Notes under the pieces: model-generated | Database searches by the model: none | Told to the model about the DNA's origin: nothing | What the model saw: the letters and a program-made list of their open reading frames with translations, nothing else | Program-made: the position numbers and the translations under genes | DNA from: Guptibacillus hwajinpoensis | Lineage (GTDB): Bacteria > Bacillota > Bacilli > Bacillales > Bacillaceae_O | Assembly: GCA_016841765.1 (NCBI GenBank) | Contig: JAENYN010000009.1 | Span: 1-64,000 of the forward strand | Reading direction: 5' to 3' | DNA: 64,000 bases | In this document: positions 41,506 to 49,110 of the stretch, piece after piece | Layout: each line of letters opens with the position of its first letter | Numbering within the stretch: position 1 is the stretch's first letter

Positions 41506-44439
41506 GTGAAAACCTGGAACATCGTGTATGAGACAAAAGATAAATTGGAAAATTTCATAGATAAAAATGACATCCGGTCTGCCGATCGTGTACTTGTGCA
41601 AATTTTTTCGGGAATCACGGACCGGGACAAACTTCAGACGCTTGCAAATGAAATTGCAGACCTGCTTCCAAAAGCGGCTGTCGCAGGAGCGACGACTGAT
41701 GGTGAAATACATAACGGAGAACTCAGTTTTTCTGCAGCCGTAATCACGATTTCTGTGTTTAGAAATACAGAAATTCATACTGCTCATATTGGTTGGGAGC
41801 ATAACATTCCCGGCAGCAGGGCTGAAGGGAAGAGCCTCGCAAAAAAATTGGGATGTTCCGATCCGCAGGTACTGCTACTATTCAGCGACGGCTTGAATAC
41901 AGACGGTAAGCAATTTATCAAAGGGGTGGAGGATATCCATCCGGATGCAGTGATTGCAGGGGGGATGGCCGGGGATAACGGTTTATTCCGGGAGGCGTTT
42001 GTAATTGAAGGACGGAATATACTCCATAATGGAGCGGTTGCAGTGGCTCTTGTAAGTGATAATCTCCAGGCCAAAACGTTTTTGAACCGGAATTGGACAA
42101 GGGTCGGGAAGGAAATGACAATAACGTCATCTGCCGGCAGAAGAATCGTAACAATCGATGATAAGCCAGCCGTGGAAGCTTTCGGGAAGTACCTGGGCTC
42201 CACTTCCGATAAGGAACTTAAAATGACAGCTTCCGGTTTTCCGCTGATGGCAGGAAGGGAAGGGGAAGAACTCACCCTTTTTGTCAGCGGCCTGTTTGGC
42301 GATGGGTCGATTGAAGTGACGGAGCCTTTAAAGCAAGGGGAACAGGTCCAGTTTGCATACGGGAATGTGGAAGCGATGGTCCGCGACGCGGAAAAGATCG
42401 GCAACGAGTTGAAAAACTGGGCGACAGAAGCAGTTTTCATCTATTCCTGTATGGCACGGCGGCGTTTTTTGCAGGATTTTGCCGGACATGAACTGCAGGC
42501 CCTGAATATTGAGTTTCCAATTTCGGGTTTTTTCTCGTACGGAGAATTTTTCAGAGATGATAAAAAAGAAGCTGATCTATGGAGCCAGTCAATGACGGTT
42601 CTGGCACTGTCAGAAACAGTCCCTGAAACAGAAGTGAAGAAGGATGGGAGCCCTGCAGGCAGCAGGATCACCATACCGGAAAAATACCGTCCGTTCGTGG
42701 CCATGTCCCACCTCCTTCATTCCGTAACAGAAGAGCTGCAGCACCTGAATAATCATTTGCAGGAATCGGAACAGCTTTTCAGATCCCTTTTCGAACATAA
42801 TCCGGATATCGTGTACTCTACCGACATGGACGGTTACTTTATGAGTGTGAACCCAGCTTTTGAAAAAAAATTCGGGATAAGCCGGTCAGAAATCAAAGGG
42901 AGCTTTTCTCTCGATTATATTGATCCGGAGGACAGGGAGCGGGTGATGTGCCATTTTGAGAAAACACTTCAGGGCATTGAACAGCACTATGATATGCTTA
43001 TCGACGACCGGAATGGCAACAAGGTTCATTTGCAGGTAAAAAATGTTCCGATCATGATCAACGGTAAAATGGCGGGAGTGTTTGGAATTGGCCGTGATTT
43101 AACCGAGCAAAAAGAAGCGGAGGAACAAATTTCATTTTTGGCTTATCATGATGCATCAACCGGTTTGCCGAACCGTTATTATTTAAAAGAGAAATTGGAG
43201 TTTCTTGTGAACCGGGCCGAAGCGACGGATAGACCGCTTGCCTTGCTGTTCATTGACCTTGACCATTTTAAAGTGATTAATGACAGCCTTGGCCACCAGG
43301 TCGGTGATGAAATTCTGGAGATCGTCATAGAAAGGCTGAAGAAGGTCATGCCGGAAAGCGCTTTCCTGACCAGATTCGGCGGTGATGAATTTATTATGAT
43401 TGTGCCGCATCTCGATTCATTGGGTGACCTAGTGGTTGTCGCCCGCAGCCTGCTGTTTTCCCTTTCAGAAGTTGTCTATTATGCCGGCCGCGAATTTTTC
43501 ATTACCGCCAGTATAGGCGGGAGCGTATATCCGGATGACGGAGAGGATGCCGGGACTCTTATAAAAAATGCCGATGCTGCCATGTTCCGGGCAAAGCAGC
43601 AGGGCCGCAACAGAGTGGAATTTTACGCGACCGAAATGAACGATACAGCCAAATATCGCCTTGAGCTCGAATCTTACTTGCGGAAAGGGCTGTACAACAA
43701 TGAATTCTTCCTATGCTATCAGCCGATTATTGACATTGAAATCGGCCGTCTTACCGGCGCGGAGGCGTTGATCCGCTGGAACCATCCGAAACTGGGGCTT
43801 GTTTCGCCGGGAGACTTTATTCCAATTGCAGAAGAAATTGGAATAATCGAAGAAATCGGCCGCTGGGTCTTGTTTGAAGCATGTAAAACAATGAAAAAAT
43901 GGCATGAAGATGGATTTGGCAATCTGACGATATCTGTCAATGTGAGCGGGAAACAATTTCAGAGCGGCCGGTTTTTGAAAGATGTAAAAGAAGTGCTGCT
44001 CGAGACAGCGCTTAATCCGGCTTACTTGAATCTGGAACTCACCGAAAGTGTGATGCTGAGAAACACCAGGTACACGATCGATGTCATGACGCAGCTCAAA
44101 CAGCTGGGTGTAAAGGTCTCGATCGATGATTTCGGGACAGGTTATTCATCACTCAGTTATTTAAAAGACCTGCCGATCGATTTCATCAAAATCGATAAAT
44201 CGTTTATCCATAACCTTGAAGAGGGATCGCCGGATATGGCAATCGCCCAGGCGATCATCACGATGGGAAAGGGATTATCAGTCGGTGTGCTTGCCGAGGG
44301 CGTGGAAACAGCCCGTCAGCTTGAGATGCTGAAAAATCTGCGCTGCCGCTATATCCAAGGATTTTACATCAACAGGCCGTTAACGGAAGAACTGTTTGAA
44401 GAAGAAATGGATAAACTGATTGAATATAAGTACCGCTGA
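41506..44439 (+). CDS. FIST sensor - PAS - GGDEF - EAL cyclic-di-GMP signalling protein
   Basis: N-terminal FIST_N/FIST_C (VAGATTDGEIHNGE; FPISGFFSYGEF), PAS (LFEHNPDIVYSTDMDGYF), FGGDEF, TGAEALIRWNHP, SIDDFGTGYSSLSYL. Confidence 0.92.
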   Translation: MKTWNIVYETKDKLENFIDKNDIRSADRVLVQIFSGITDRDKLQTLANEIADLLPKAAVAGATTDGEIHNGELSFSAAVITISVFRNTEIHTAHIGWEHNIPGSRAEGKSLAKKLGCSDPQVLLLFSDGLNTDGKQFIKGVEDIHPDAVIAGGMAGDNGLFREAFVIEGRNILHNGAVAVALVSDNLQAKTFLNRNWTRVGKEMTITSSAGRRIVTIDDKPAVEAFGKYLGSTSDKELKMTASGFPLMAGREGEELTLFVSGLFGDGSIEVTEPLKQGEQVQFAYGNVEAMVRDAEKIGNELKNWATEAVFIYSCMARRRFLQDFAGHELQALNIEFPISGFFSYGEFFRDDKKEADLWSQSMTVLALSETVPETEVKKDGSPAGSRITIPEKYRPFVAMSHLLHSVTEELQHLNNHLQESEQLFRSLFEHNPDIVYSTDMDGYFMSVNPAFEKKFGISRSEIKGSFSLDYIDPEDRERVMCHFEKTLQGIEQHYDMLIDDRNGNKVHLQVKNVPIMINGKMAGVFGIGRDLTEQKEAEEQISFLAYHDASTGLPNRYYLKEKLEFLVNRAEATDRPLALLFIDLDHFKVINDSLGHQVGDEILEIVIERLKKVMPESAFLTRFGGDEFIMIVPHLDSLGDLVVVARSLLFSLSEVVYYAGREFFITASIGGSVYPDDGEDAGTLIKNADAAMFRAKQQGRNRVEFYATEMNDTAKYRLELESYLRKGLYNNEFFLCYQPIIDIEIGRLTGAEALIRWNHPKLGLVSPGDFIPIAEEIGIIEEIGRWVLFEACKTMKKWHEDGFGNLTISVNVSGKQFQSGRFLKDVKEVLLETALNPAYLNLELTESVMLRNTRYTIDVMTQLKQLGVKVSIDDFGTGYSSLSYLKDLPIDFIKIDKSFIHNLEEGSPDMAIAQAIITMGKGLSVGVLAEGVETARQLEMLKNLRCRYIQGFYINRPLTEELFEEEMDKLIEYKYR

Positions 44440-44897: not shown

Positions 44898-44917
44898 TAA
44901 CACGCTTTTTTAATTAT

Positions 44918-45097
44918 AGGCACAAGAACCGAGCTGCCGTGCCTATAATGGATGCCCTGGCCCGATGAAAGGCACAAGAACCAAACTGCCATGCTCATAA
45001 AGAATGCCCTGACCTGAATAAAAGGACAAGAACCAAGCCGCCGTGCCCATAATGGATGCCCCTGGCCTGAATAAAGGTACAAGAACCACCACGCCGA
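44918..45097. repeat. Tandem hairpin array 2, 52-53 bp period, 4 units
   Basis: Units begin at 44918, 44970, 45023, 45075: aGGCACaagaaccgagctgccGTGCCtataatggatgccctggcc. Confidence 0.9.
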
Positions 45098-45303
45098 TAT
45101 GTTTTTCTACCTTATTGAATCCCAAGCTGCAGAACGAGCCCCTCAGCATAAATCAAATCCCCTTATTATATCCCATTAAAAAACCCCTCTTTTAACAAAC
45201 CCACAAGAATGGTACATGCCCTTTCTCATTTCCAGGCAGGCGGCCGCATAAGCTGAATAAGTATAGGGAAATCAGCCGGTACCGAGCAGAAAGGGTGAAA
45301 GTT

Positions 45304-47151
45304 ATGTGCGGAATCACAGGCTGGATTGATTGGCGGCACAACTTGAATAACGAGCATGGGATAATTGAGAAAATGGCTGGAACCTTATCGAAGCGGGGAC
45401 CAGATGATGTTCAAACATGGTTTTTTTTTTCAAGCAGAAGACGGCATACGAGATTAATAGTGGTGGATCCCGCTGGCGGCAAGCAGCCGATGACTAAATC
45501 GGACCGGACCGGCTCTTATACGATTGTATATAACGGAGAGCTATATAATACAGAAGCGATCCGTAGTGAATTAAAAAGCAAAGGCTACTATTTCAATTCT
45601 TATTCGGATACAGAAGTGCTGCTTACGGCTTATATGGAGTGGAAAGAAAACTGCGTTGATATCCTGAACGGTATTTTTGCTTTTGCCATATGGGATGAAA
45701 GCGAACAAAGGCTTTTCATGGCCCGAGACAGACTTGGGGTCAAACCGTTATTTTTCCAGGAAAAAGACGGCCGCCTGCTGTTTGGTTCTGAATTGAAAGC
45801 GATTCTGGCGCATCCGGATGCAAAGCCTGAAATTGACCGGGATGGCCTTGCTGAAATATTTGCAATCGGCCCTTCCCGTACTCCCGGCCACGGCATTTTT
45901 AAAGGAATGGAAGAGCTGCGTCCTGCTCATGCGCTGACATACACAAGAAACGGATTGAAAAAATGGCGGTACTGGAACGTGGAGAGCAGGCCGCATACAG
46001 ACTCGCTGACAGAAACCGTTTCAAACATCAAAGCACTCGTCATGGATGCAATTGAGCGTCAGCTGGTGGCGGATGTGCCGGTTTGCACCTTTTTATCTGG
46101 CGGAGTTGATTCAAGTGCCATTACAGCCATTACAGCCAGAAAATTCAGACGTGAAGGGCAAAGCCCGTTAAATACGTATTCGGTTGATTACGAGGAGAAT
46201 GATAAATATTTTAAAAAAAATAAATTTCAGCCTGACCCCGATGGCCCCTGGATTGAAAAGATGTCAAAAGCATATGGGACAGCACATCACCGCTGCGTCA
46301 TTTCAAACCGGGACCTTGCCGGCCTGCTGAAGGAGGCGGTTATTGCCCGTGACCAGCCGGGAATGGCCGATATTGATTCGTCACTGCTCTGGTTTTGCAG
46401 TGAAATTAAAGAAGATATGACAGTCGGGTTGTCCGGTGAATGTGCAGATGAGATTTTCGGCGGCTATCCGTGGTTCCATCATCCGGAAGAAGCGGAAAAG
46501 GGGATATTTCCATGGATGAGATCCACAAAGGCCCGGCAGCAGCTGCTTCTGCCATCATGGCAATCGAAACTGAACCTGGAAGAATACGTTCAGCGCCGCT
46601 ATGCTGAAACTGTTAGTGAAACCCCTGTGCTGGAAGGGGAATCGGAAATCGATGCAAAGAGGCGCGAGCTCTTTTACATGAACATGATCTGGTTTATGAC
46701 TACACTGCTTGACCGGAAAGACCGCATGAGCATGGCGGCAAGCCTTGAGGTCAGGGTGCCGTTTGCTGATCATCGCCTTGTCGAGTATGTGTGGAATGTG
46801 CCGTGGGAAATGAAAATGCACGGCAACTGTGAAAAAGGGATACTGCGCAAAGCGCTTGAAGGTATACTTCCCGATGATGTCTTGTACCGGAAGAAGAGTC
46901 CGTATCCGAAAACCCATCATCCGGGGTATACCAGGGCAGTCCAGGAGTGGATGGAAGAAACATTGAATGACTCGAACGCACCGCTCTTTGAGTTCTTAGA
47001 CTGGAAAAAAGTGAAGGAGATCAATGATTCCGGCGGTGCTTCATTTAAAGATCCATGGTTCGGGCAGCTGATGACAGGACCGCAGCTGATTGCGCACCTC
47101 GCCCAGATCAATTACTGGTTTGAAGCGTATGGGGTGGAGGTTGTGGAGTAG
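45304..47151 (+). CDS. asnO: Asparagine synthase (glutamine-hydrolysing), AsnO-like; contains an adapter-derived artefact
   Basis: MCGITGWID, RGPDD, NGELYN, VPVCTFLSGGVDSSAITAI; synteny after yisL. Residues after RGPDDVQTW are corrupted (see adapter feature). Confidence 0.92.
   Translation: MCGITGWIDWRHNLNNEHGIIEKMAGTLSKRGPDDVQTWFFFSSRRRHTRLIVVDPAGGKQPMTKSDRTGSYTIVYNGELYNTEAIRSELKSKGYYFNSYSDTEVLLTAYMEWKENCVDILNGIFAFAIWDESEQRLFMARDRLGVKPLFFQEKDGRLLFGSELKAILAHPDAKPEIDRDGLAEIFAIGPSRTPGHGIFKGMEELRPAHALTYTRNGLKKWRYWNVESRPHTDSLTETVSNIKALVMDAIERQLVADVPVCTFLSGGVDSSAITAITARKFRREGQSPLNTYSVDYEENDKYFKKNKFQPDPDGPWIEKMSKAYGTAHHRCVISNRDLAGLLKEAVIARDQPGMADIDSSLLWFCSEIKEDMTVGLSGECADEIFGGYPWFHHPEEAEKGIFPWMRSTKARQQLLLPSWQSKLNLEEYVQRRYAETVSETPVLEGESEIDAKRRELFYMNMIWFMTTLLDRKDRMSMAASLEVRVPFADHRLVEYVWNVPWEMKMHGNCEKGILRKALEGILPDDVLYRKKSPYPKTHHPGYTRAVQEWMEETLNDSNAPLFEFLDWKKVKEINDSGGASFKDPWFGQLMTGPQLIAHLAQINYWFEAYGVEVVE
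45421..45454. other. Illumina P7 adapter plus poly-T embedded in the assembly (contamination)
   Basis: TTTTTTTTTT CAAGCAGAAGACGGCATACGAGAT, exact 24 nt P7 sequence; translates to FFFSSRRRHTR. Confidence 0.97.
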
Positions 47152-47240
47152 GGAAACAGGCTGCTGCAAGCGTTGAATTTCCTGTGGCGTGGGGGAAGCG
47201 TGCTCGGTCAAGTGCCTATAGGCAGGTGAAAGGAAAAAAT

Positions 47241-47482
47241 AGAGGCACGGGGTTTTGTTTGTCGTGCCTATAAATTGCGGTAGGACTAAAATAGAGGCAC
47301 GGGATTCTGTTTGCCGTGCCTATAAATTGCGTTGCGACCAAAATAGAGGCACGAGACTCTGTTTGCCGTGCCTATAAACAGCGGTGCGACCAAAATAAAG
47401 GCACGGGATTCAGTTCCGCGTGCCTATAAACTGCGGTGCGCCTCAAAATAAAGGCACGGGACTTTATACCCCGTGCCTTTAT
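47241..47482. repeat. Tandem hairpin array 3, 52-53 bp period, 5 units
   Basis: Units begin at 47241, 47293, 47345, 47397, 47450: agAGGCACGGgattctgtttgCCGTGCCTataaattgcg. Confidence 0.92.
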
Positions 47483-47742: not shown

Positions 47743-49110
47743 CTAATGGGTCCGTGCCGCTTTTCCGATGCTATCCAGGCGTTCGATCAGGCCGGTGCCG
47801 AATGCTTCGGATCCTGGTGTTTCGTTTTGCAGAATGAAATCTTTAAACTCATAAGACTGGGAGCCGTGTTCAGCGAAATCAAGTCCTGCAATTTCTTCTT
47901 CCGGACTGACACGGATCGGGGAAAATAGCTTATGGAGCAAAAGGAAACCGGAAACAGCGGATAGTGTCCACGCGGCAATGGCAGCAATTCCGACTGCCTG
48001 AATCCCGAGCAGTGCAGCGCCTCCTCCGTAGAATAGGCCTGATGATGTGCTGAAAAGCCCGACGGCGAGTGTTCCCCAGATTCCGGCTACACCGTGTACA
48101 GCAATCGCGCCAACCGGATCATCGATTTTCAAAACCCGGTCGATGAATGGGACAGCTGCAGCAAGGATGATGCCGGAAACTGCACCAATCACGAGTGCGG
48201 CAGCCGGGGAAACATCGGCAGTGCCGGCTGTGATTCCGACAAGCCCGGCAAGTGCTCCGTTCAACGTCAGTGAAGCATCAATACGCCGGTATTTCAGATG
48301 GGAATAAAAAGCCGTCATCACTACTGCCGCAGATGCGGACAAAAGAGTTGTCGTCACGACATGTGGAATCAACTCAGGATCGGCTGCAAGCGTGCTGCCG
48401 CCGTTGAATCCAAACCAGCCGAACCAGAGAATGAATACTCCGAGAGCACCGAGCGGGATATTATGCCCTTTAATGATATTCACCTTACCGCCCTTGTATT
48501 TGCCGATCCGGCCGCCAAGTATTTTTGCCGCCGCAATCGCACCCAGAGCCCCGGTGAGATGGACGACTGAAGAACCGGCGAAATCAATGAATCCAAGTTC
48601 AGTCAACCAGCCTCCGCCCCATGTCCAGTGGCCGACAACAGGATAAATGAAAGCGGTCATCATGACTGTCAGCAAAAGATAGCTGGACAGTTTCATGCGT
48701 TCGGCAACCGCGCCGGAAATGATGGTTGCACAAGTCGCTGCAAAAACGGCCTGAAAGACAAAAAATCCGATATCCGCTTCCTTGCCGATCAGCGCAAACC
48801 CGTCTGTTCCGATGAAGCCGCCTGCGCTTGTTCCGAACATAAGGCCGAATCCGATAAAGAAATATAAAATTGAAGCGGCAGCGATTGTCAGCATGTTTTT
48901 CATGAGGATGTTCAGGGAGTTTTTCGAACGGGTGAACCCCGTTTCTACCATTGCAAAGCCGGCGTGCATGAAAAACACAAGAAAAGCTGCTGTGATCATC
49001 CAGATCATATCGACGGAAGCCGAAAGTTCTTCCACACCTTTTTCAGCAGCAAGTGCTGAAGTGGGGAATGACAGGGCAACAATGGACAATATGGCTGCTT
49101 TAATTTTCAC
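47743..49110 (-). CDS. amt: Ammonium transporter
   Basis: FFMHAGFAMVETGFTRSKN, GHWTWGGGWL, GSSVVHLTGALGAIAAAKILG, AVHGVAGIWGTLAVGLF. Confidence 0.94.
   Translation of the reverse strand: MKIKAAILSIVALSFPTSALAAEKGVEELSASVDMIWMITAAFLVFFMHAGFAMVETGFTRSKNSLNILMKNMLTIAAASILYFFIGFGLMFGTSAGGFIGTDGFALIGKEADIGFFVFQAVFAATCATIISGAVAERMKLSSYLLLTVMMTAFIYPVVGHWTWGGGWLTELGFIDFAGSSVVHLTGALGAIAAAKILGGRIGKYKGGKVNIIKGHNIPLGALGVFILWFGWFGFNGGSTLAADPELIPHVVTTTLLSASAAVVMTAFYSHLKYRRIDASLTLNGALAGLVGITAGTADVSPAAALVIGAVSGIILAAAVPFIDRVLKIDDPVGAIAVHGVAGIWGTLAVGLFSTSSGLFYGGGAALLGIQAVGIAAIAAWTLSAVSGFLLLHKLFSPIRVSPEEEIAGLDFAEHGSQSYEFKDFILQNETPGSEAFGTGLIERLDSIGKAARTH

What the first reader, a model, noticed from the sequence alone, without database searches (positions are those of the whole stretch)
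45421..45454. Illumina P7 adapter plus poly-T built into the asnO coding sequence
The sequence TTTTTTTTTTCAAGCAGAAGACGGCATACGAGAT contains the exact 24 nt P7 oligonucleotide. It yields FFFSSRRRHTR right after RGPDDVQTW, where AsnO homologues have roughly a 12-residue segment ending GH(R/K)RL. The insert appears to replace the native bases without changing length, so the gene looks intact while about 11 codons in the glutaminase domain are wrong. Nothing biological should be inferred from this segment.
Basis: partly seen in the sequence, partly recalled or inferred. Interest (0 to 1): 0.9.

Follow-up and report, generated by a model that had tools for sequence, protein, structure and literature searches.

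The report
Illumina primer overwrote part of asnO
A 34-base stretch in the middle of an ordinary asparagine-synthase gene is the anchoring oligonucleotide of an Illumina sequencing slide, not bacterial DNA; it probably sits there because the gene happens to contain a sequence resembling the end of that primer, and the same silent, length-preserving error was found in several unrelated published genomes.

Summary
In detail: ten T's (45421-45430) plus the exact P7 24-mer (45431-45454) lie in asnO, the only copy in the 4.27-Mb assembly. The artefact reading is supported, with two corrections.

First, fewer codons are wrong. In the sister species the same 34 columns end GGGCATACAAGAT, matching 11 of the last 12 bases of P7. 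His-Thr-Arg is therefore native in kind; only residues 40-47 (FFFSSRRR) are foreign.

Second, the place is not random. In six other independent records (E. coli prophage, Shinella katG, Klebsiella phage, Vibrio phages, two viral contigs) an index-less T10+P7, or T10+P5, replaces exactly 34 (or 39) native bases, and each native site resembles the primer's 3' end. The P5 behaviour was predicted before it was looked for.

Best explanation: a surface P5/P7 oligo with its 10-T spacer misprimed inside the insert; reads ran into primer and spacer, then returned to genome in register. Site similarity and length neutrality are shown. The mixed-cluster step restoring the register is inferred, since no reads were available.

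This is not a biological feature, but an error mode that keeps reading frames open and lacks the TruSeq/Nextera sequence trimmers look for.

The parts
45304..47151 (+). asnO-type asparagine synthase gene, 615 aa from ATG 45304 (first in-frame GTG is 45295); the gene that carries the artefact
   Evidence: ORF; Pfam Asn_synthase and GATase_7; NCBIfam TIGR01536 above its cut-off; single-copy full-length relatives in nearly all of 40 genomes searched
45421..45430 (+). ten T's, the 5' spacer of the surface-bound P7 oligo
   Evidence: sequence; T10-P7 and T10-P5 immobilised primers in PMC11123353; about ten T's precede P7 in many contaminated records
45431..45454 (+). exact Illumina P7 24-mer
45421..45442 (+). 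stretch that is foreign by comparison with the sister (T10 plus the first 12 bases of P7); spoils residues 40-47
   Evidence: native match 2/10 under the T run and 2/12 under the 5' half of P7
45443..45454 (+). inferred priming site: bases in which P7 and the native gene agree or nearly agree (sister GGCATACAAGAT); encodes the end of the conserved G-H-T-R-L segment
   Evidence: 11/12 match of the sister to the P7 3' end; no other 12-mer of the window reaches 11/12; only exact copy in the assembly

Best explanation
The 34 bases are a sequencing artefact. The asnO gene of this organism naturally has, or nearly has, GGCATACGAGAT where it encodes Gly-His-Thr-Arg-Leu, and that is the 3' end of P7. 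During cluster amplification the surface-bound T10-P7 oligo primed there inside a library insert. Shown: exact T10+P7; exact 34-for-34 replacement; a P7-like native site in the sister; the same features in six other independent records, with T10-P5 behaving likewise. Inferred: such clusters hold both truncated and full-length strands. A read coming from the downstream side calls genome, then the P7 complement and ten A's from the truncated strands; when those templates end it goes back to calling the full-length strands at the right cycle, in register. The read therefore carries an in-register overlay that assembles as if real, and the fragment lacks the TruSeq/Nextera sequence that trimmers look for.
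For: Exact oligo including spacer, single copy, no other adapter in the assembly. Sister 34-for-34 with 11/12 match at the P7 3' end. Independent cases, all exactly length-neutral on primer-like native sites: Klebsiella phage Marfa 12/12 of the last 12 bases, Vibrio phage D173 11/12, Shinella katG and an E. coli tail sheath as near-full-length gapped matches, viral contig L179 10/12, and for P5 viral contig L314 with a native 3' run of nine, GATCTACAC, 39-for-39. Internal copies tend to lack the index and adapter whereas contig-end copies have them, and the internal index-less P7 copies L179, L184 and L205 keep the frame. Vibrio D59 shows a native/primer mosaic in the spacer columns.
Against: No raw reads were available, so neither the mixed cluster nor the strand bias could be seen. 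The window organism's own bases at the site are unknown; the match is inferred from a sister at 86% protein identity. Eight sites with one mismatch to the last 12 bases elsewhere in the genome show no overlay, so a good 3' match is not sufficient. The E. coli and Shinella sites match P7 only with gaps.
Confidence: 0.85

Rival explanations
1. Same mispriming, but the overwrite is made by software: reads with a primer tail are aligned over the native place and a consensus or polishing step replaces the columns by majority.
For: Length neutrality and the native/primer mosaic in Vibrio D59 would also follow from column-wise voting.
Against: The same exact 34-for-34 result appears in drafts, finished genomes and metagenome contigs from different groups, also at gapped sites where an aligner might have placed gaps. 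Common aligners would be expected to clip a 22-base mismatching tail (own knowledge).
Confidence: 0.25
2. Ordinary adapter read-through or a chimera joined at a random place by the assembler, with no role for a primer-like site.
For: Read-through contamination with P7 is very common in public assemblies (PMC11536531).
Against: Read-through leaves index plus TruSeq/Nextera sequence next to P7 and sits at contig ends; here neither holds. Random joins would not be exactly length-neutral nor fall on primer-like native sites in seven of seven comparable cases.
Confidence: 0.05
3. The 34 bases are really in the chromosome, as an engineered or natural sequence.
For: The ORF stays open and in frame.
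Against: Chance is nil. The same 34-mer with the surface spacer sits in unrelated genomes at primer-like sites. It would put FFFSSRRR in place of the segment before the conserved Gly-His-x-Arg-Leu, including loss of the Gly that all 20 relatives shown have.
Confidence: 0.005

Closest known systems
Adapter contamination of microbial assemblies (Moeller et al. 2024, PMC11536531)
   Same: Illumina oligonucleotide sequence left in published assemblies.
   Different: That work screens for the TruSeq universal adapter AGATCGGAAGAG and finds it concentrated at contig ends. Here there is P7 alone with its spacer, far inside a contig, replacing native bases one for one; that screen would not find it.
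P7 read-through with index and TruSeq/Nextera sequence
   Same: T-run followed by P7.
   Different: No index and no Rd2 or Nextera sequence follows P7 here, unlike most of 124 P7 copies in genome contigs. Those insertions change length: for E. coli d1-58 the record with the adapter is 62 bp longer than another record of the same strain.
Index-less T10+P7 in Klebsiella phage Marfa, Vibrio phages D173 and others, Shinella katG, E. coli tail sheath, and viral contigs L179 (P7) and L314 (P5)
   Same: Exactly length-neutral replacement on a primer-like native site.
   Different: The closeness of the native 3' match varies from 13 identical bases to a gapped match. For the window the native sequence is known only from a sister species.
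AsnO/AsnB-type asparagine synthase
   Same: The host gene is an ordinary member.
   Different: Residues 40-47 as published are artefact.

Membership tests
Illumina P7 surface oligo | exact 24-nt P7 sequence | tested here: met
Illumina P7 surface oligo | ten-T spacer directly 5' of P7 | tested here: met
   the T10-P7 design of immobilised primers in PMC11123353
Ordinary adapter read-through | index plus TruSeq or Nextera sequence 3' of P7 | tested here: not met
   P7 is followed directly by TAATAGTGGTGGATCC, which aligns to the sister's gene
Ordinary adapter read-through | position near a contig end | tested here: not met
   45.4 kb into a 100,108-bp contig
Surface-primer mispriming overlay (class described here) | exactly length-neutral replacement | tested here: met
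   34 for 34 against the sister
Surface-primer mispriming overlay (class described here) | native site resembles the primer 3' end | tested here: met
   sister 11/12; the window organism's own bases cannot be seen
Surface-primer mispriming overlay (class described here) | overlay confined to reads of one direction, opposite strand native | not testable with these tools
   no raw reads available
Glutamine-dependent asparagine synthase (AsnO/AsnB) | Asn_synthase and GATase domains, Cys after the initiator Met | tested here: met
Glutamine-dependent asparagine synthase (AsnO/AsnB) | conserved Gly-His-x-Arg-Leu before the Val-Val-Asp segment | tested here: inconclusive
   HTRL is present but the Gly reads Arg because the overlay covers that codon

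The most novel reading that the evidence does not exclude
Mispriming by the P5/P7 oligos of the flow cell is a systematic error source whose sites can be predicted from sequence. It writes in-register, length-neutral 34- or 39-base overlays into published genomes, including finished ones, recurs at the same site in related isolates, keeps reading frames open, and escapes adapter trimming and contig-end screening.
Probability: 0.65. Interest if true: 0.5.

Novelty: not a real feature. Interest (0 to 1): 0.35.

Why it matters
For this genome, eight residues of AsnO must be ignored and nothing biological inferred from them. More widely, overlays of this kind do not break genes or contigs, contain no TruSeq/Nextera sequence, and recur in related isolates because the priming site is inherited, so they can pass for conserved sequence (eleven Vibrio phage records share one; Klebsiella phages Marfa and EI share another). 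A screen for 8-10 T's plus P7 or P5 followed directly by genome would find them, and candidate sites can be predicted from a genome's matches to the primers' 3' ends.

Tried and rejected
Rejected: chance; general untrimmed adapters in this assembly; contig-end contamination. My first idea, a consensus vote by the assembler, is kept as a rival. E. coli LR536430 asnB (H9) looked like a second asnB case but is a partial match elsewhere in the gene that reads as ordinary coding sequence. Records with P7 plus index plus adapter (L144, L145, L152, L153, L156, L157) belong to a different class that changes length. Direct junctions at contig ends (L062, L097, L109) and L133 were not compared with relatives. 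Proteus phage Saba has no close relative over the site. G725/L169 (index-less, internal) lies in a diverged stretch; two relatives have ATATGAGAT where P7 ends, which is suggestive only. A P5 test on L306 found no relative, and one on L311 was given in the wrong frame and not repeated. Recurring hits on Salmonella plasmids were left unfetched, and a 1-kb stretch of an Agrobacterium plasmid was fetched but not used.

Full report
OBSERVATION. The window reads TTTTTTTTTTCAAGCAGAAGACGGCATACGAGAT at 45421-45454. The last 24 bases are exactly P7: the only match within three mismatches in the window, none expected in shuffles, and the only match within two mismatches in the 4.27-Mb, 91-contig assembly. 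It lies 45.4 kb into a 100,108-bp contig, inside a 615-aa glutamine-dependent asparagine synthase. The assembly has no P5 (20-mer) within two mismatches, no AGATCGGAAGAGC and no Nextera end within two mismatches.

WHAT IT REPLACED. The closest relative held (same genus, 86% protein identity) aligns without a length change: TGG-[CTGAACGGGTCCGCGGCATTCGGGCATACAAGAT]-TAATAG against TGG-[T10+P7]-TAATAG, 34 bases for 34. The sister's last 12 bases match P7's last 12 at 11 positions, against 2/10 under the T run and 2/12 under the 5' half of P7. In the 64-kb window no 12-mer other than the insert itself reaches 11/12. In protein terms HTRL is shared with the sister, and the aligned relatives all have G-H-[TKR]-R-L; only the eight residues FFFSSRRR before it are out of place. 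The single exact GGCATACGAGAT of the whole assembly is the one in the insert, and eight sites with one mismatch elsewhere are untouched. This agrees with the best primer-like site of the genome having been hit, but it cannot prove that the strain's own bases were a perfect match.

COMPARISON CASES. T10+P7 was sought in E. coli genomes, phages and plasmids, and selected places were read. Two classes appeared. In one, P7 is followed by an index and TruSeq or Nextera sequence: ordinary read-through, which changes length. In the other, genome follows P7 directly. Every member of the second class that I could compare with a close relative was exactly length-neutral and lay on a P7-like native site. 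Klebsiella phage Marfa against HMGUkp2: native CCGGCATACGAGAT, 13 identical 3' bases; phage EI carries the same overlay. Vibrio phage D173 against 219E44-1: native GGACGGCATCCGAGAT, 11 of the last 12; eleven records share the overlay, all 52,228 bp long like clean relatives. Shinella katG: native CAAGCAGAAGTACGGCAACAAGAT, nearly the whole primer with two one-base gaps. E. coli prophage tail sheath: native CAGCAGAAGCCGTCAACGATAT, a match with one gap. In Vibrio D59 the spacer columns are a mosaic of native and T.

PREDICTION TESTED. If the surface primers are at fault, P5 should do the same. In viral contigs T10-P7 at contig ends is followed by adapter in 114 of 118 cases but in only 2 of 6 internal ones; for T8-P5 the figures are 64 of 73 at ends and 2 of 8 internal (one of the six internal 'direct' P5 cases, L325, shows a damaged adapter remnant). 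These scans were capped or limited in what they show, so the counts describe the sample only. Internal index-less P7 copies L179, L184 and L205 (the last is phage Marfa again) keep the reading frame, which a 34-base insertion would not. The internal P5 copy L314 has close relatives: exactly 39 bases are replaced and the closest native sequence ends GATCTACAC, the last nine bases of P5. The internal P7 copy L179 is 34-for-34 over native TGCAAACGAGAT, 10/12. That makes six independent comparison cases beside the window.

MECHANISM. Ten T's before P7 and P5 is the design of immobilised primers for bridge amplification: PMC11123353 adds a 10-T sequence to both to reduce steric hindrance on the surface. 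That Illumina's own grafted oligos have such a spacer is my own knowledge. The simplest account is mispriming by the grafted oligo at a primer-like site inside an insert. A mixed cluster of truncated and full-length strands would make a read run genome, primer, ten A's and then, when the truncated template is exhausted, continue in the full-length sequence at the right cycle. This gives exact length neutrality even at gapped sites, exactly ten T's, intact flanks on both sides, mosaic columns, survival of demultiplexing (the index comes from full-length strands) and escape from adapter trimming. The priming-site and length facts are shown; the mixed cluster is inference and needs reads. Column voting by software is the main rival for that last step, and priming by free P7 primer during library PCR remains possible, though such fragments would lack an index.

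KNOWN OR NEW. Adapter contamination of assemblies is well known and has been described as concentrated at contig ends and detectable by the TruSeq universal adapter (PMC11536531). I found no paper in the held library that describes length-neutral overlays by surface primers, but subscription journals and technical notes are not held. As biology the finding is not a real feature; the interest lies in the error mode.

Noticed in passing
L169 (G725:C5:84133-84160): A second index-less, internal T-run plus P7 in a draft genome of the same phylum, next to recQ-like coding sequence; two relatives have ATATGAGAT where P7 ends.
   Followed up: partly
NZ_AP040927.1 and NZ_CP187961.1 (L146): Two records of E. 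coli strain d1-58 differ by 62 bp in total length, and the longer one has an imperfect P7 plus index plus TruSeq stretch between adhE and tdk that the other lacks: a same-strain control for read-through contamination.
   Followed up: partly
plasmid records H50-H51, H58-H60, H64-H67, H70, H73: T-run plus P7 recurs at similar places in several Salmonella plasmid records of similar size, as would be expected of an inherited priming site; not fetched.
   Followed up: no
window 44900-45100 and 47200-47400: Imperfectly repeated intergenic units (GGCACAAGAACC...GCCGTGCCTATAATGGATGCCC before asnO; AAAATAGAGGCACGGGATTCTGTTTGCCGTGCCTATAAA after it) flank asnO on both sides.
   Followed up: no
window 41506-44439 (+): 977-aa protein with FIST, PAS, GGDEF and EAL domains upstream of asnO.
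   Followed up: no
window 47743-49110 (-): Ammonium transporter gene downstream of asnO.
   Followed up: no
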